Shown here in pieces: positions 57,385-64,000 of a DNA stretch of 64,000 bases. Source of the DNA: Georgenia muralis (GTDB lineage Bacteria > Actinomycetota > Actinomycetes > Actinomycetales > Actinomycetaceae). The number at the start of each line of letters is the position of its first letter. Positions within the stretch are counted from its first letter, which is position 1. Position numbers and translations under genes: made by a program. The notes beneath the pieces are model-generated. The model ran no database searches. It was not told the origin of the DNA and worked only from the letters and a program-made list of their open reading frames with translations. The DNA is taken from the NCBI RefSeq assembly GCF_003814705.1, contig NZ_RKRA01000001.1:1860001-1924000 (forward strand), read 5' to 3'.

Positions 57385-58155
57385 GTGGGGGTCGCGGTGG
57401 TGGACGTCTGGTTCGTGGCCGCCGGCGTGGGTGAGCAGTGGTTGACCCAGCGCTCCACCGTCGACGCGCGCGGGCTGCCGGCCGAGCTGGACGCCGTCGA
57501 GGAGAGGCGCGCGCGCCGGCTGCGGCCCGACCGGCGAGCCGCCTTCGTGGTTGCACGCGTCATGCTGCGGCGAGTTCTCGGTGAGCGACTGGGCCTCGCG
57601 CCAGAGGCCGTGCCGCTCGTCGCGCGCTGCGAGCTGTGCGGGGAGGCACATGGGCAGGTCCATATCGAGGGGGTCGAGCGGCTGTGGGTCAGCGTGACCC
57701 GCAGCTCGGGTGTGCTCGCGGTCGCGCTGACCGACGCCGGACCGGTCGGTATCGACGTCCAGTCTGTTGCCTCCGTCGATGCAGCCCCGGTTGTGGACGT
57801 CGCGCTCTCACCTGGTGAACGACTCCAGGTCGAGGGCCTGGCGCCGGCTGAGCGGCCGGACGCCGTCGCCGCCGCCTGGGTGCGGAAGGAGGCGGCGCTG
57901 AAGGCGCTCGGGACGGGTTTGCGGCGCTCCCCCTCGGACCTCGAGATGATGCCGCTCGTCGGCGGTGCGGCTGTACGTGGTGTCCCCGATCTGCAGGTCG
58001 CGGACCTCGGTGTCGGGCCCGGGATCGTCGGCGCGGTCGCCGTGCTGCTGGGCGGTGTCGGTACGGGCGGTCCAGGAACGGACGAACGGCCGCGAGTCGA
58101 GGTACGGCCCCACGAGGGCGAGATCCTGCTGGATGCGGAGCAGCGCGATCAGTAG
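57385..58155 (+). CDS. 4'-phosphopantetheinyl transferase (Sfp type)
   Basis: Transfers phosphopantetheine from CoA to carrier proteins, 256 aa. Sfp-family landmarks: RRAAFVVARVMLRRVLGERL, WVSVTRSSGVLAVAL, Mg-binding VGIDVQSV, and AAWVRKEAALKALGTGL with the catalytic Lys-Glu. The C-terminal 60 residues are less conserved. GTG at 57385 after AGGA; other in-frame GTGs follow at once. Ends inside the 3' end of the DUF222 gene (7-bp convergent overlap). No polyketide/NRPS genes are here, so the carrier protein is unknown. Confidence 0.85.
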   Translation: MGVAVVDVWFVAAGVGEQWLTQRSTVDARGLPAELDAVEERRARRLRPDRRAAFVVARVMLRRVLGERLGLAPEAVPLVARCELCGEAHGQVHIEGVERLWVSVTRSSGVLAVALTDAGPVGIDVQSVASVDAAPVVDVALSPGERLQVEGLAPAERPDAVAAAWVRKEAALKALGTGLRRSPSDLEMMPLVGGAAVRGVPDLQVADLGVGPGIVGAVAVLLGGVGTGGPGTDERPRVEVRPHEGEILLDAEQRDQ

Positions 58156-60767
58156 GGCGGGGCGTCGTGGTCCGAGGGCGGGTCGGCGGGTGCGGCTCCG
58201 GGCAGCGGTGCTGACGTGGGTCGGTGGTGGCGGAGGTAGGGGGGTGTGTGGGGGAGCATGGTGATGGTGCCGTTGATCTGGCGTCGGTAGGCGTGTCCGG
58301 TGGGGGTGAGCCATTCGAAGATGCCGGGTTCGGGTTGGGCGACGGTGAAGATGCCGGCGGTTTTGATGGTGTGGTCGCGGGTGCACATGGGTCCGCCGTT
58401 GTGTGCGGCGGTGGGGCCGCCGTGGGCCCAGGCTTGGGTGTGGTCGTACTGGCAGCGGTGGGCGGGGGTGGTGCAGCCGGGGCGGACGCAGGTGCGGTCG
58501 CGTTGGCGGACGTGGTCGAGGAGGTCGGCGGGGGGCCGGTAGCGGGTGCGTCCGACGTCGAGGACCGCGCCGGTCAGGGGGTCGGTGACGATCCGGCGCC
58601 AGGTTCCTCCGGCGGCGAGGGCGCGGGCGACGTCGGGGGTGATGGGTCCGTAGCCGGCGAGGGTGGCGACGCCGGCGGGTGGGTCGTCGGGGAACTCGCC
58701 GGTCAGGGCGGGCGGGTCCTGCGGCGGGTCGGTGGTCGGTGGGTCGGTGGTCGGCGGTGACTCTGCGGGGTGGTCGGGGAGCTCGCCGGGCACCGTCGGC
58801 GTGTCCTGCGGCGGGTCAGACGTTGGCGTGGTGGTCGGTGGCGGCGTGGTGGTCGGCGGCGGGGCGCTGGTGGGTGGTGGGAGGAGGACGGACAGGGGGA
58901 CGTCGAGGCGGAGGTCGACCCGTGGGGGGTCGCCGAACCACTCGCCGTCGGCGGGGATGAGCAGGTGCAGCGGGGGCAGGCGGGGCCCGGGGTCCTGGGG
59001 GACCGGGCACCGGCACGTCGCCCCAGCCCCGACGGCCCTGGCCCCGACGCCCCCGGTCCCGATGGCCTCGCCCCCGGCGTCGGGTGCCCCGCGCCCGGGG
59101 TCCGGCCCGGCCCCGGGTGTGTGGGTGTCGGTGGTCGGTGGGGCTGCGTGGCCGTCGTCGCCGTCGCCGTCCCCGTGGTCGTGGTCGTGGTCGTGGTTGT
59201 GGTCGTGGGTGTGGGTGGTGGGGCGGAAGCGGCCGGTGATGAGGGCGAGGAGGATGTCGGCTCGGAGCTGGTCGGTGGTGCGGGTGTCGCCGGCGGCGCG
59301 GGCGGATTGGGCCATGTGGTCCAGGACGAGGTCGATCTGGACGCAGCTGGTGGCGGTGGTGATGGCGCTGATGCGGCCCATGCCGTCGGGTAGGGGTTGG
59401 GTGTGGGTGACGTGGCGGTGGCCGCGGGCGCGGTGGTGGCGGGCCTGGGCGTCGGTGGGGTCGACGGCGATGAGCTTGTCGGCGAGGTCGCGGACGAGCT
59501 GGGGGTGGGTGCGCCGGTCGGCCTCGGTGAGGATGTCGTGCTCGACCATCCAGGCCACGGGGGTGGGGCTGTGGTGGAGGGTGGCGACGATGGTGGCGGC
59601 CTTGCGGTAGTCGATCTCGCCGGCCTCGAGCCGGTCCCGGGTCTGGTGGAAGGACCGGGTCAGGCCCTGGCCGGTGGCGACGAGCTTGGCGGCGTCCTGG
59701 CGGGTGGTGGCCAGGCGTAGGGCGAGCTCTTCGGCGGTGCCGTCGATGGTCTTGGGGGCGGCCGCGCCGGTCTTGGCGTACATCACCGGTTCGGTGGCGA
59801 CGTGGGCGGCGGCGAGCGCGGCCCGTCCGGCGGACCAGGACTCCAGGCGTTTGTAGGCGGCGACGACCTCGACCTTGGCGAAGGGGGCGAGGGACTCCAG
59901 GTCGATCTCGTCCAGCAGCGCGGCGAGCTCGGGTCCTGGGGCCATGGAGGCCAGGACGTTCAGGGCGACCCCGAGGGTGGCCGCGTGCTCGGCGTAGACC
60001 TGCGCGATGACCTCCGCGATCGGCCGGTCCAACCGCCGCCGCCGGACCCGACCACCGTCCTCGTCAGCGTCAGCGTCAGCGTCAGATTCAACGTCAGATT
60101 CAACGTCGGCACCGGCACCGGCATCGGAGCCGGAGCCGGTGTCGGCGTCGGCAGTGGGGTCGTGGTCCTGGTCGTCGTGATCGAGGCGCGCGACGGAGCC
60201 GGACTCGGTGCCGGAGCCGGCGGCGGGGTCGGTGCCGGCGGCCGGGTCGGTGCCGGCGGCCGGGTCGGGGTCGGCGGCCGGGTCGGGGTCGGCGGCCGGG
60301 CCGGTGCGGGGGTCGGCGGCGGTGGTGGTGGGCTGGGGGAGGGTCTCGGCGACGGCCTGGTACCCGCCGGGGCCGAGGAGCTGGTCGAAGACGCCCTGGG
60401 ACCACCGGTTGCCGTCGTGGGCCCGCTCGGCCAGGCCCTTGAGACCGATCGCGGTCAGGGTCCGGGCCCGGGCGATGCGTTCCTCGGCCCGCCACTCCCG
60501 CTGCACCGCGATCAGGTGCTCGCACCCACCGTTGGTCAGCGCGTCGGCGTAGCAGCAGTACCCGCGCTCCCGCGCCTGCGCATCCCGCGCCTCGGCATCC
60601 CCGACCGGGCCGCCGCCACGCCCCGTGGGGTCCCCCGCCCGGGCCTGGCCGTCGCGGCCCGGGGCGTCCCCGGGCTCAGCGTCACCGTCGGGGGCCGCCG
60701 CACCGGGCTCAGCGTCGCGGTCGCGGGCCGCCGCACCGGGGTCCTGGTCCACCGCTCCCACCTCCAC
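58149..60767 (-). CDS. DUF222 / HNH endonuclease domain protein
   Basis: Large protein of the actinobacterial 13E12-like DUF222-HNH family, 872 aa. DUF222 lies at about 230-480 (LASMAPGPELAALLDEI, ARLATTRQDAAKLVATGQGL, RDRLEAGEIDYRKAATIVA). The C-terminal HNH nuclease motif is CVRPGCTTPAHRCQYDHTQ followed by NGGPMCTRDHTIKT. Between them and in the N-terminus are long low-complexity tracts: Asp/Ala/Pro repeats, a His-Asp tract (HDHNHDHDHDH) and Thr-Pro-rich linkers. GTG start at 60767, or the GTG at 60752 that has GGAGG upstream. Function unproven; these genes are often multicopy and may be selfish. Confidence 0.85.
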   Translation of the reverse strand: MEVGAVDQDPGAAARDRDAEPGAAAPDGDAEPGDAPGRDGQARAGDPTGRGGGPVGDAEARDAQARERGYCCYADALTNGGCEHLIAVQREWRAEERIARARTLTAIGLKGLAERAHDGNRWSQGVFDQLLGPGGYQAVAETLPQPTTTAADPRTGPAADPDPAADPDPAAGTDPAAGTDPAAGSGTESGSVARLDHDDQDHDPTADADTGSGSDAGAGADVESDVESDADADADEDGGRVRRRRLDRPIAEVIAQVYAEHAATLGVALNVLASMAPGPELAALLDEIDLESLAPFAKVEVVAAYKRLESWSAGRAALAAAHVATEPVMYAKTGAAAPKTIDGTAEELALRLATTRQDAAKLVATGQGLTRSFHQTRDRLEAGEIDYRKAATIVATLHHSPTPVAWMVEHDILTEADRRTHPQLVRDLADKLIAVDPTDAQARHHRARGHRHVTHTQPLPDGMGRISAITTATSCVQIDLVLDHMAQSARAAGDTRTTDQLRADILLALITGRFRPTTHTHDHNHDHDHDHGDGDGDDGHAAPPTTDTHTPGAGPDPGRGAPDAGGEAIGTGGVGARAVGAGATCRCPVPQDPGPRLPPLHLLIPADGEWFGDPPRVDLRLDVPLSVLLPPPTSAPPPTTTPPPTTTPTSDPPQDTPTVPGELPDHPAESPPTTDPPTTDPPQDPPALTGEFPDDPPAGVATLAGYGPITPDVARALAAGGTWRRIVTDPLTGAVLDVGRTRYRPPADLLDHVRQRDRTCVRPGCTTPAHRCQYDHTQAWAHGGPTAAHNGGPMCTRDHTIKTAGIFTVAQPEPGIFEWLTPTGHAYRRQINGTITMLPHTPPYLRHHRPTSAPLPGAAPADPPSDHDAPPY

Positions 60768-60900
60768 CTCGAACTGGTGTTCCCACCGTAGAGCCGGGGT
60801 ACGACATCGCCACCACGACTGTGGACACCACCCCCACCACGGCCCTGTGACAGGCGTAGAGAGTTCACGAAAATTGCCACTGCGCAGGTCAGCAACTTAG

Positions 60901-61120
60901 AGACTCCGTGGAGTCTCGCCGGGGCTCGCGAAGATGGTGCTCCGGTGGCGGTTGGCGCGATGCTGGCGGCGTGGGGGTGCCGACAGGGACACTGGTGGTG
61001 TTCGTCCCGGTAGACCCCGCGCCCTCTGTGGTGCCGTTGAGCCTGTAGGTCAGCATGGTGGCGGAGGGCCTCCACGGGAACCGTGGAATGTTGCCTTTGA
61101 GCACGAGCGTCAGACTTCGA
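60901..61120 (+). ncRNA. Candidate IS110 bridge RNA
   Basis: The leader of the transposase contains several perfect hairpins: AGACTCC-GT-GGAGTCT (60901-60916), GCCCTC/GAGGGC (61021-61026 with 61064-61069) and TCCACGG-GAA-CCGTGGA (61071-61087). IS110 recombinases are guided by a structured RNA from the non-coding end, so this is a good candidate. Boundaries are a guess. Confidence 0.4.
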
Positions 61121-61190
61121 AACACTCCCAGCCCTTCCCGGGACGAACGCACCGTTACTCCACCAAGGCGGATGAGGGGAAGTGGTCGGG

Positions 61191-62441
61191 ATGGAAGTCC
61201 TGCACCGGCGGTGCGCCGGGCTCGACGTATCGAAGAGGGACGCCAAGGTCGCGGTCCGGATCGCTGGAGGCGGCCGAGCGGGGGCGAAGTCGACCGTCAC
61301 GACGTGGGGAGCGACCACGAACTCGATACTCGCCCTGCGTGAGCATCTGATCACCGAGGCTGTCACGTGCGTGGTCATGGAGGCCACGAGCGATTACTGG
61401 AAGCCGTTCTACTACCTCCTCGAGGACGGCCCGTTCGAAGTGCTGCTCGTCAACGCCCGGCACGCCAAGAACATGCCGGGCCGCAAGAGTGACGTCTCCG
61501 ACGCGGCCTGGTTGGCGCAACTGGGCGCTCACGGCCTGGTGCGTGGATCGTTCGTGCCGCCGCCGCCGGTACGGGAACTGCGGGACCTGACCCGCACTCG
61601 CACGGCGCTGACCCGCGAACGCAGCCGCGAGATCCAGCGCTTGGAAAAGCTCTTGGAGGACGCCGGGATCAAGCTCTCCGCCGTCGCCTCGGACATCACC
61701 GGGGTCTCCGGGCGGGCGATGCTCGATGCGCTCATCGCCGGTGAACGGGATCCGGCCGTGCTGGCTGACCTCGCAAAGCGGCGCATGCGGGTCAAGATCC
61801 CCCAGCTCACCGAGGCGTTGACCGGACGCTTCAACGATCACCACGCCTTCCTTGCCCAGATGCATCTGGACCTGATCGATCACCACACCGAGGCCGTCGA
61901 CCTGCTCACCACCCGGATCGAGAGGATGATCGAGCCCTTTCGCCACGTCAGGGACCTGATCATCACGATCCCGGGCATCAGCGTGTTGGTCGCCGACGTC
62001 ATCATCGCCGAGACCGGAGCCGACATGGCCATCTTTCCCACTGCGGGACACCTGGCCTCCTGGGCCGGGACGTGCCCGGGATCGAACGAATCCGCCGGGC
62101 ACGTCAAGTCCACCAAGACACGCCCGGGCAATCCCTACCTCAAGGGGGCCCTCGGCATCGCGGCCATGGCCGCCGCGAAGTCCAAGAGCACCTACCTCGC
62201 GGCGAAGTACCGGCGCATCGCCACACGACGAGGCCCGATCAAGGCCCAGGTCGCACTTGAGCACGCGATGCTCGTCGCAATCTGGTACATGCTCACCAAC
62301 GACAACCCCTACCACGAGCCCGGAGGCGACTACTTCGTCCGACTCAACCCCGACAAGGCCAAGAACCGCGCCCTCGACCAACTCCGACAGATGGGCTACG
62401 ACGTCACCCTCTCACCCGCCCACCTGCCTATGGCCGGGTAA
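61191..62441 (+). CDS. IS110-family transposase (DEDD recombinase)
   Basis: RuvC-like DEDD transposase, 416 aa, intact. Catalytic acids Asp12 (AGLDVSKRD), Glu64 (VVMEATSDYW), Asp101 and Asp104 (RKSDVSDAAWLAQL). The C-terminal Tnp_20 domain has PGISVLVADVIIAETG and the Ser-containing CPGSNESAGHVKSTK motif. ATG at 61191 has GAGGGGA about 10 nt upstream; a GTG at 61182 is in frame. The 5' non-coding region is longer than the 3' one, as in the IS110 rather than the IS1111 group. Confidence 0.92.
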   Translation: MEVLHRRCAGLDVSKRDAKVAVRIAGGGRAGAKSTVTTWGATTNSILALREHLITEAVTCVVMEATSDYWKPFYYLLEDGPFEVLLVNARHAKNMPGRKSDVSDAAWLAQLGAHGLVRGSFVPPPPVRELRDLTRTRTALTRERSREIQRLEKLLEDAGIKLSAVASDITGVSGRAMLDALIAGERDPAVLADLAKRRMRVKIPQLTEALTGRFNDHHAFLAQMHLDLIDHHTEAVDLLTTRIERMIEPFRHVRDLIITIPGISVLVADVIIAETGADMAIFPTAGHLASWAGTCPGSNESAGHVKSTKTRPGNPYLKGALGIAAMAAAKSKSTYLAAKYRRIATRRGPIKAQVALEHAMLVAIWYMLTNDNPYHEPGGDYFVRLNPDKAKNRALDQLRQMGYDVTLSPAHLPMAG

Positions 62442-62544
62442 ATCTTCGCGTCAGACGGGTGTGGTGTGGTCGATGCGGGGCTACCGCGGCCGGCGCAGCA
62501 CACCTGCAGGTCACGGACGAACGCCGACCTCCGTCGTGGTCCGC

Positions 62545-63879
62545 CTATGACCCCGGAAGCGCCGGAAGCCGTGGGCGGTCGAGCCACGCGGTGAGGACGG
62601 CGTCGACGCGATCGGCCAGCGCCGGCCCGCCCTCCAGCTCGGCCCGATGGGCCGCGAGTGCGCGGAACTGTCCGGTGGTGACGGTGCCGTACCGGTGCCG
62701 ACCGGTCCAGGCCCGCAGCAGCTCGAAGAACGCCTCGTCACCGAGCGTCCGGCGGAGTGCGTGCAGCGTCAGTGCCCCCCGCTTGTAGATGAGATCATCG
62801 AAGATCCGCTCGGGGCCGGGATTGGAGACGACGAGGTCCTGGCCCGTGCCGCCCAGGCGCCGGTGCCATGCGCGGGCGAGCGAGTCGGCGCTCTCGCCAC
62901 CAGAGTGCTCGGACCACAGCCACTCGGCGTACGAGGCGAAGCCCTCGTTGAGCCAGATGTGCCGCCACGAGTCCACGGTGAGGGAGTTCCCGAACCACTG
63001 GTGCGCGAGCTCGTGCGGGACCAGGCGTGCGCCGTCGTCGTCGCTGAGGTGGTTCGAGCCGAAGACCGACATCCCCTGCGCCTCGACCGGGATCTCGAGC
63101 CGGTCGGCGGTGACGACGAGCGTGTACCCCGCGAACGGGTAGGGCCCGAAGACCTCCGTGAAGTAGGCCATGAGCTCGCAGTGCCGCGCGAGCAGCCGCT
63201 GCGCAGCTGCGCGGTGGGCCGCCGGCACGACCACCCGCTGCGGAACCGGCTGCTCTCCCAGCGCGACGCTCTCGTAGTTGCCGATCTGCACCGTGGCGAG
63301 GTACGTGGCGGTCGGGTGGCGCTCCTCGTAGACCCACGTGGTCGCCGAGGACCGCTCCTTGCGCGCGACCAGCTCCCCGTGCGCCAGGACGAAGAAGGGC
63401 CGGTCCACCGTCAGCGAGGTCCGGTAGGTGGCCTTGTCCCCAGGCCGGTCGTTGCACGGGAACCACGAAGGCGCCCCCGTCGGCTGGCTCGCGACCAGCA
63501 CGCCCTCCTCCAGCTCCTCCCAGCCCACCGGACCCCACGGGCTGTCCATGGGGACCGGCCGACCGCCGTAGCGCACCGAGACCTCGAGCAGTGCGCCGTC
63601 GCCGACCTCCTCCGCGAACCGCAGGACGAGCTTGTCGCCGCGGTGGCGGTAGCGCGTGAGCACGGCGCCACGCACCGCGACCTTCTCCACCGTCAGCCCC
63701 GCGAGGTCGAGGGCGATCTCCCGCATCTCCTCCCGTGTGCGCACGGTCAGCGTGGCGACGCCGACGAGCACGTTGGGCACCACCCGGTAGGTCAGGTCCA
63801 GGTCGTAGTGCTCGACGTGGATGCTCCCGCTCCCGTGCGCGGGCTCGTACCGGTCGGTCTCCTCGGTGCCCGCGCTCAC
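62545..63879 (-). CDS. M1 family metallopeptidase (short form)
   Basis: Zn aminopeptidase of 444 aa, about half the length of PepN because it ends after the thermolysin-like catalytic domain. N-terminal beta-saddle domain (about 1-230); the exopeptidase loop reads IPVEAQGMSVFG in place of GAMEN; Zn site HELAHQWFGNS (about 288) and WLNEGFASYAEW with the third ligand. GTG start after GAGAGGAGCC. No signal peptide. Short M1 proteins like this are common in actinobacteria; the substrate is unknown. Confidence 0.93.
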   Translation of the reverse strand: MSAGTEETDRYEPAHGSGSIHVEHYDLDLTYRVVPNVLVGVATLTVRTREEMREIALDLAGLTVEKVAVRGAVLTRYRHRGDKLVLRFAEEVGDGALLEVSVRYGGRPVPMDSPWGPVGWEELEEGVLVASQPTGAPSWFPCNDRPGDKATYRTSLTVDRPFFVLAHGELVARKERSSATTWVYEERHPTATYLATVQIGNYESVALGEQPVPQRVVVPAAHRAAAQRLLARHCELMAYFTEVFGPYPFAGYTLVVTADRLEIPVEAQGMSVFGSNHLSDDDGARLVPHELAHQWFGNSLTVDSWRHIWLNEGFASYAEWLWSEHSGGESADSLARAWHRRLGGTGQDLVVSNPGPERIFDDLIYKRGALTLHALRRTLGDEAFFELLRAWTGRHRYGTVTTGQFRALAAHRAELEGGPALADRVDAVLTAWLDRPRLPALPGS

Positions 63880-63930
63880 CGGCGGCTCCTCTCGTCGTCG
63901 GCACTGTCGTGGGTGGAACGTGGCCGGCCG

Positions 63931-64000
63931 GCCCTGTCGTCGGCACCCGCACGGCGGCCGGCCCTGTCGCCGGCACCCGCACGGCGGCCGGCTCCGTCGT
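63931..64000. repeat. 30-bp tandem repeat upstream of the M1 peptidase
   Basis: Two 30-bp units (63931-63960, 63961-63990) differing by one base and a partial third running off the window. A gene start upstream may lie beyond the edge. Confidence 0.85.

What the first reader, a model, noticed from the sequence alone, without database searches (positions are those of the whole stretch)
60850..61190. Candidate bridge RNA in the leader of an IS110 element
At least three perfect hairpins and an enclosing stem lie in the 290 nt before a DEDD transposase with all catalytic residues. IS110 recombinases use such a structured RNA with target- and donor-binding loops to choose sites. A high-GC actinobacterial version with an intact enzyme would extend this class.
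Basis: partly seen in the sequence, partly recalled or inferred. Interest (0 to 1): 0.55.

Follow-up and report, generated by a model that had tools for sequence, protein, structure and literature searches.

The report
Actinobacterial IS110 bridge RNA, swapped guides
This stretch encodes the guide RNA of an intact jumping gene, and it differs from the textbook versions because its two target-reading segments come in the opposite order, even though the RNA gene sits in the usual place.

Summary
The element spans about 60891-62454. It is an IS110-type insertion sequence with a second, 100% identical copy in the 4.14 Mb genome; the second copy's site is uninserted in related genomes. Its leader holds a conserved RNA (about 61000-61148). 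In 38 sequences 96.9% of pair cells are standard pairs, and 19 of 30 pairs change on both sides. Across 54 insertions the RNA tracks flanking and terminal DNA. RNA 61047-61051 matches the five left-flank bases before the core in 42 of 54 (8.4 by shuffling). RNA 61021-61025 is complementary to the right flank (at least 4 of 5) in 24 of 54 (8.6). RNA 61108-61111 matches the right end in 49 of 54 (25.6). RNA 61054-61055, a handshake guide, matches the left end in 48 of 54 (19.4). The core is AG. What is not textbook: the right-target guide precedes the left-target guide. That is the order reported for the IS1111 group, the reverse of IS621 and ISEc21, yet the RNA lies upstream of a 416-aa IS110-type transposase. 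The ends also carry an 8-10 bp subterminal inverted repeat, reported as an IS1111 hallmark. No right-donor guide was found. Nothing was tested experimentally.

The parts
60891..62454 (+). Whole IS110-type element, core AG at each end (60891-60892 and 62453-62454)
   Evidence: 100% identical second copy at G000:C1:1202276-1203845; flanks of copy 2 are continuous, without the element, in 7 of 7 loci fetched from other genomes of the genus
60900..60917 (+). Left-end hairpin (8 bp, loop GT)
   Evidence: Sequence. Relatives often have a hairpin of other sequence here, but only 19 of 64 rows exceed the 95th percentile of shuffles, so conservation as a structure is weak
60927..60936 (+). Left arm of subterminal inverted repeat, CGCGAAGATG
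   Evidence: Reverse complement of 62441-62450 with 1 mismatch; the 8-mer covaries between ends in 51 rows (3 of them one repeated site), z = 10.8, 0 of 2000 shuffles
61000..61148 (+). Conserved bridge RNA, bounded by an 11-bp enclosing stem 61000-61010/61138-61148; inner stem 61063-61069/61131-61137; hairpin 61072-61076/61082-61086; stem-loops 61030-61044 and 61089-61105
   Evidence: covariance model R1, which was built with this sequence in it, scores 152.8 bits here. Transcript ends not measured
61021..61027 (+). Right-target guide with core CU (61026-61027), 5' side of the target loop
   Evidence: Best 6-nt complement of the right flank in the whole RNA ends exactly at 61025, z = 5.2, 0 of 2000; next best non-overlapping site z = 3.0. 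At least 4 of 5 pairs in 24 of 54, 8.6 expected
61044..61053 (+). Left-target guide with core AG (61052-61053), 3' side of the target loop
   Evidence: Best 8-nt match to the left flank ends exactly at 61051, z = 13.4, 0 of 2000; next best site z = 4.3. All 5 core-proximal bases pair in 42 of 54, 8.4 expected
61054..61055 (+). Handshake guide of the target loop, equal to the first two bases of the left end
   Evidence: Both match in 48 of 54, 19.4 expected; z = 10.3 for 3 nt
61106..61113 (+). Left-donor guide with core AG (61112-61113), matches the right end
   Evidence: z = 12.1, 0 of 2000; next best site z = 5.2. All 4 core-proximal bases pair in 49 of 54, 25.6 expected
61191..62441 (+). DEDD recombinase (416 aa from ATG 61191; the ORF list starts at GTG 61182)
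   Evidence: PF01548 1e-24 and PF02371 6.7e-18; NF033542 'IS110 family RNA-guided transposase' 250 bits against cut-off 140; IS621 and ISCro4 chains found
62441..62450 (+). Right arm of subterminal inverted repeat, AATCTTCGCG; its first base is the last base of the stop codon

Best explanation
The leader encodes the bridge RNA (seekRNA) of a complete, recently mobile IS110-type element. Shown by sequence: a nested RNA with an outer stem, a target loop on its 5' side, then an inner stem enclosing a donor region. In the target loop, RNA ...CCCU-CU occupies the place that is complementary to the right target across relatives, and RNA UAGGUC-AG matches the left target (it would pair with the bottom strand). 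In the donor region, GCGUC-AG is identical to the right end of the element. Two bases after the target-loop AG equal the start of the left end, as a handshake guide would. Inferred: the RNA-bound recombinase makes a circle by joining right end, AG and left end, pairs target and donor through the RNA, exchanges strands at AG and inserts with one core copy and no longer duplication. Also inferred: the RNA keeps the IS621 polarity (5' guide ends in CU, 3' guide ends in AG followed by handshake bases), but the physical ends are swapped, so the 5' target guide reads the right flank. The transposase-plus-RNA cassette is thus inverted relative to the recombination site when compared with IS621.
For: Two identical copies with flanks that share CAGGTCAG and a G-rich right side; homologous sites of copy 2 without the insertion in the genus. 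Compensatory change in the stems and G-U over A-C asymmetry that fixes the strand. Scans over the whole RNA put the left-target guide, right-target guide, donor guide and handshake bases at mutually consistent cores, and counts agree in all 54 rows and in the 49 left after dropping five. Core covariation: the two rows with an AA core (L054, L055) have AA in the left-target guide and UU in the right-target guide core. The same convention applied to four E. coli IS621 copies finds the left-target guide in the 5' part of the RNA, as published (by eye, left side only; PMC11208158 passages). A related recombinase follows the RNA in 27 of 36 covariance-model matches, the window included. A partly independent set gives z = 6.3 for guide against upstream DNA.
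Against: No transcript or activity data. Predicted folding energy is not unusual. The right-target signal is the weakest: at least 4 of 5 pairs in 24 of 54, and the two copies here each pair only 3 of the 5 bases beyond the core. No right-donor guide complementary to the left end was found anywhere. Donor-loop handshake bases against the right target show no clear signal, although the window site itself fits. Shuffles do not keep relatedness: several sites away from the guides also reach 0 of 2000, with z up to 5.2, so z must be read against that background. Streptomyces elements are over-represented. The left-end boundary came from an alignment that included the flank.
Confidence: 0.9

Rival explanations
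1. A bridge RNA with the ordinary IS621 guide order; the swapped order is an artefact of strand or end labelling, for example because the functional RNA is the antisense strand.
For: Folding energy does not distinguish the strands, and the right-target signal is weaker than the left-target one.
Against: G-U against A-C counts 199 to 13 fix the sense strand, and about 130 to 13 without the one constant U-G pair. The same labelling applied to IS621 finds its left-target guide where published. No segment 3' of the left-target guide beats 61021-61025 as complement of the right flank.
Confidence: 0.07
2. A structured 5' leader that regulates transposase expression (attenuator or RNA-binding autoregulation), not a guide.
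For: The RNA ends about 40 nt before the start codon. Small RNAs and 5'-UTR structure regulate the IS110 member ISPpu9 (cited in PMC11208160, passage).
Against: A leader regulator would not match the host DNA flanking each insertion (42 of 54 against 8.4 expected). It could be an additional role.
Confidence: 0.03
3. Chance hairpins in GC-rich DNA of a decayed element.
For: Single-sequence fold z = -1.8.
Against: Compensatory covariation, intact catalytic residues, identical second copy.
Confidence: 0.01

Closest known systems
IS621 and its bridge RNA (PMC11208160: outline, passages, sections 12 and 21; PMC11208158: passages and section 7)
   Same: RNA in the left end upstream of the recombinase; target and donor guides; core included in the guides; 5' guide ends in CU and 3' guide ends in AG; handshake bases after the 3' target guide
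   Different: IS621 order is left guide, stem-loop, right guide in both loops (target loop residues 50-58 then 77-80). Here the right-target guide comes first. Core is AG on the transposase strand, not CT; recombinase 416 aa, not 326; the two parts share a nested outer stem; no right-donor guide found
IS1111-group seekRNAs, e.g. ISEc11, ISPa11, ISKpn4 (PMC11187229: abstract, passages, sections 6, 12, 13, 14)
   Same: Top-strand complement lies 5' of the bottom-strand complement; subterminal inverted repeat
   Different: IS1111 RNA usually lies downstream of a 330-350 aa transposase; here it lies upstream of a 416-aa one. The left repeat arm lies 35-44 bp inside the end
ISEc21 (IS110 type; PMC11187229, section 12)
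   Same: Upstream non-coding region giving the RNA
   Different: Reported order is bottom-strand match first; opposite here
ISArsp3-family element (Arthrobacter sp. FB24; label from the record's product name)
   Same: 65% identical transposase; the same RNA upstream, 117.9 bits, 1308-1461 of L143
   Different: Other guide sequence; no literature search was made for ISArsp3 by name
ISAar29 (one of six predicted bridge RNAs in PMC11208160 Extended Data Fig. 10c; legend only seen)
   Same: Possibly the same subgroup (a guess from its name, which suggests Arthrobacter)
   Different: Figure not held, so its guide order and relation could not be checked
ISKrh6 (Kocuria rhizophila; PMC12500396, passages)
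   Same: Actinobacterial IS110 element drawn with an upstream seekRNA region
   Different: Relation to the window's element not tested; the passages give no guides and leave its ends open

Membership tests
IS110 family transposases | DEDD RuvC-like N-terminal domain plus Transposase_20 domain with catalytic serine | tested here: met
   PF01548 and PF02371, NF033542 above cut-off, residues conserved. The motif reads S-A-G, not the S-G described for the family
IS110 family transposases | Insertion without target duplication beyond a short core | tested here: met
   Copy 2 flanks joined at one AG align through the site in 7 of 7 loci fetched from other genomes
IS110-type (IS621-like) bridge RNA | Long non-coding left end upstream of the transposase, short right end | tested here: met
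   About 300 bp before the gene, 13 bp after the stop codon
IS110-type (IS621-like) bridge RNA | Guides complementary to both target strands and to the donor | tested here: inconclusive
   Left target, right target and left donor met; right donor not found
IS110-type (IS621-like) bridge RNA | Left-target guide precedes right-target guide | tested here: not met
   61021-61027 precedes 61044-61053; order right then left
IS110-type (IS621-like) bridge RNA | No identifiable long subterminal inverted repeat | tested here: not met
   8-10 bp repeat that covaries across relatives
IS1111 group | RNA downstream of the transposase | tested here: not met
   RNA upstream, right end 13 bp. PMC11187229 section 6 lists a few exceptions within IS1111
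IS1111 group | Top-strand complement precedes bottom-strand complement | tested here: met
IS1111 group | Subterminal inverted repeats of 7-17 bp | tested here: met
   8-10 bp; left arm lies 35-44 bp inside the end
IS1111 group | Transposase of 330-350 aa in the IS1111 clade | tested here: not met
   416 aa, within the published 395-455 aa range of the IS110-containing subgroup. Size only: no tree with named members was made
Functional bridge RNA | RNA expressed, bound by the recombinase and reprogrammable | not testable with these tools
   Needs experiment

The most novel reading that the evidence does not exclude
The subgroup of long IS110 transposases (the 395-455 aa size class that includes founding IS110) uses a third bridge-RNA arrangement: RNA in the left end as in IS621, but guides in IS1111 order, with a subterminal inverted repeat and no separate right-donor guide. 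RNA position and guide order would then be independent traits, explained by inversion of the transposase-plus-RNA cassette relative to the recombination site while the RNA chemistry stays that of IS621.
Probability: 0.5. Interest if true: 0.62.

Novelty: new variant of a known kind. Interest (0 to 1): 0.5.

Why it matters
Published accounts link RNA position and, in one of them, guide order to the split between IS110 and IS1111. This element and its relatives break that link, so the order question becomes directly testable: does the recombinase read the opposite DNA strand as 'top'? Three guides, the core, the ends and an uninserted site are defined to the base, so it is a ready candidate for a programmable recombinase from high-GC bacteria with a different core (AG, or AA in two Nocardia copies).

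Tried and rejected
Rfam search of 58000-64000 gave no match at a gathering score, and nothing relevant below it. Folding energy did not help. The promoter scan found one weak site in the flank; no circle-junction promoter was looked for or shown. A right-donor guide was sought by complement of the left end at every RNA position; the best site (61045, z = 4.4) is no better than background hits, and the conserved GUUGC (61090-61094) fits the window's left end but is nearly constant while left ends vary, so it was not accepted. Donor-loop handshake: no clear signal. The third genome match (C1:9671-9740) is a copy of the DUF222 gene leader, not of the element. Caballeronia copies (of the four fetched, L139 and L142 were scanned and L139) lie beside an IS3 gene in the two that carry annotation; the RNA match is weak (24.7 bits) and missed the cut-off, so they were not used for guides. 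Two other multi-copy IS110 families in the genome gave no model match in the loci scanned (L127, L128, L131 of one; L135, L136 and L126 of the other), and their guide order was not worked out. The left-end hairpin is only weakly supported. No structure prediction and no tree were run.

Rows dropped: one search kept the best 80 of 166 loci. The leader alignment holds 72 sequences (window plus 71 relatives with at least 230 bases upstream). Four whose leader did not align (L041, L069, L082, L083) were removed, leaving 68. 66 had a usable left end and 56 both ends; L063-L065 are one site, which leaves 54. One search used 49, after leaving out L016 and L033 (left end not alignable) and L061, L066, L076 (right-end pattern off by one or two bases). 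One search gives both: 42, 24, 49 and 48 of 54, or 40, 22, 47 and 46 of 49. One search used 51 (the same five left out, the repeated site kept). In the partly independent set 34 of 36 matches were used: the window was left out, and L162 had too little upstream DNA. L159 has only N upstream and scored 0. L147 appears to be the same record as L013, and copies of one element from one genome are included, so the set is not fully independent.

Full report
Observation. The window holds a 416-aa DEDD recombinase at 61191-62441 (PF01548 1e-24, PF02371 6.7e-18; NCBIfam 'IS110 family RNA-guided transposase', 250 bits). Only 13 bp follow the stop codon before the element ends.

Ends and mobility. The genome has a second copy, 100% identical over 60885-62454; the first eight of those bases, CAGGTCAG, are left flank that both sites share. 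Right flanks read ACGGG and CGGGG after GTCAG. Joined flanks of copy 2 align straight through the site in 7 of 7 loci fetched from other genomes of the genus (eight others are held), in a gene whose translation I recognise, from memory and without a call, as resembling the LigD polymerase domain. For the window's own site the evidence is weaker: G005, the closest genome by that flank, lacks the element between the two neighbouring genes, but the nearest 40 bp of left and 54 bp of right flank do not align there, and GGTCAG|ATGGGCG is only seen by eye in the gap. Both ends share AG. That AG, not a neighbouring dinucleotide, is the core follows from relatives: bases on both sides vary, and two Nocardia copies have AA there.

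RNA. Relatives (80 loci kept of 166) keep the leader from about 60985 on. A structure derived by RNAalifold on 53 sequences was counted on an alignment of 38 of the same set of relatives that differ by more than 10%: 96.9% of 1137 cells paired (87.5% shuffled), 19 of 30 pairs with change on both sides (10.7), 121 double-change cells (32.5), 0 of 500 shuffles reaching any measure; sliding the partners drops pairing to 35-51%. The structure came from overlapping sequences, so sliding is a lenient control. G-U cells number 199 and A-C cells 13 in 68 sequences, so the RNA is read in the direction of the transposase gene; one constant U-G pair supplies about 68 of the 199.

Guides. For 54 distinct insertions, the window's included, I compared RNA positions with left flank, right flank, right end and left end, in both senses for the flanks. 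The best site for each of four comparisons falls where one consistent model needs it: left flank identical to RNA ending at 61051 (z = 13.4), right flank complementary to RNA ending at 61025 (z = 5.2), right end identical to RNA ending at 61111 (z = 12.1), left end identical to RNA 61054-61056 (z = 10.3); 0 of 2000 shuffles reach these (49 rows). Background sites reach z = 4.3, 3.0-3.3, 5.2 and 4.1 in the same four scans, some also with 0 of 2000, because shuffling ignores relatedness; the right-target margin is therefore the smallest. In all 54 rows: 42 pair all five left-target bases (8.4 shuffled), 24 pair at least four of five right-target bases (8.6), 49 pair all four donor bases (25.6), 48 match both handshake bases (19.4). 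In examples the right target fits over 7 bases including the core (L039 and L061, read by eye). Results against: right-target pairing is partial, the two local copies pair only 3 of 5 bases beyond the core, no guide for the left end of the donor appears, and the donor-loop handshake is not supported.

Order. The right-target guide is 5' and the left-target guide 3'. PMC11208158 (passages) gives IS621 as left guide (50-58) before right guide (77-80). PMC11187229 (abstract, sections 12 and 14) gives ISEc21, an IS110 type, with the bottom-strand match first and IS1111 types with the top-strand match first, and treats the order as a family difference. As a check on labelling, four E. coli IS621 copies were read the same way: left flank ATCAGGC-CT or ATCGGGT-CT matches ATCGGGCCT in the 5' part of the RNA; the right side was not checked (by eye). 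So the window's order is the IS1111 order in an IS110-type position. The polarity of each guide is unchanged: 5' guide ends in CU, 3' guide ends in AG followed by handshake bases. I infer that the recombinase sees the strand opposite to the transposase gene as 'top', that is, the cassette is inverted relative to the site.

Inverted repeat. RE AATCTTCGCG and LE CGCGAAGATG are reverse complements with one mismatch. The 8-mer covaries between ends in 51 rows (mean 6.8 of 8, 5.6 shuffled, z = 10.8), for example AACTCTCG/CGAGAGTT in L040. Both arms are inside the element, so shared ancestry adds to this number. [quoted passage not shown]

Spread. Covariance model R1 matches 24 of 345 genomes of the class. 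In 27 of 36 aligned matches, the window included, a related transposase follows (in L041 1500 bases away, in L149 only a 35-residue piece). Guides match upstream DNA in a partly independent set (34 rows, z = 6.3, 0 of 5000), driven by closer relatives and a few at about 50% protein identity such as L152 (12 of 12); for many distant members no clear match was found. The nearest element with a family label is ISArsp3-like (65% identity).

Literature. Six searches of the held open library listed no title or abstract on guide order in this subgroup, and the passages and sections read of four papers do not give it. Subscription papers and bioRxiv are not held, and Extended Data Fig. 10c of PMC11208160, which shows ISAar29, could not be seen. 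The variant may therefore already be drawn there.

Verdict. Most likely a real bridge RNA of a recently active element, and a new variant rather than a new kind.

Noticed in passing
G000:C1, loci L127-L134 and L135-L138: Two further multi-copy IS110 families in the genome (435 aa in 8 places, two of them with shorter frames; 454 aa in 4 places), with their own leaders. The loci scanned (L127, L128, L131, L135, L136, L126) gave no R1 match.
   Followed up: partly
G000:C1:1202276-1203845 (L002): Copy 2 sits in a conserved gene whose translation resembles the LigD polymerase domain (recognised from memory), so that gene is interrupted in this genome.
   Followed up: partly
window 58149-60767 and G000:C1:9671-9740 (L003): The DUF222 gene beside the element has a paralogue with about 92% identical DNA including its leader.
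   Followed up: no
L151, L153, L154, L157, L158, L165, L166: RNA-model matches with no related transposase in the 1500 bases downstream: solo RNAs, remnants or interrupted elements. L160 and L167 also lack one but have under 400 bases downstream.
   Followed up: partly
window 62067-62100 (recombinase residues 296-306): The C-terminal motif reads G..P....S-A-G instead of S-G; A in 78 of 80 relatives.
   Followed up: partly
window 61028: The base after the right-target core tends to be complementary to the last left-target base (43 of 54, 31 expected), either an RNA-internal CUG/CAG pair or an extra DNA contact.
   Followed up: no
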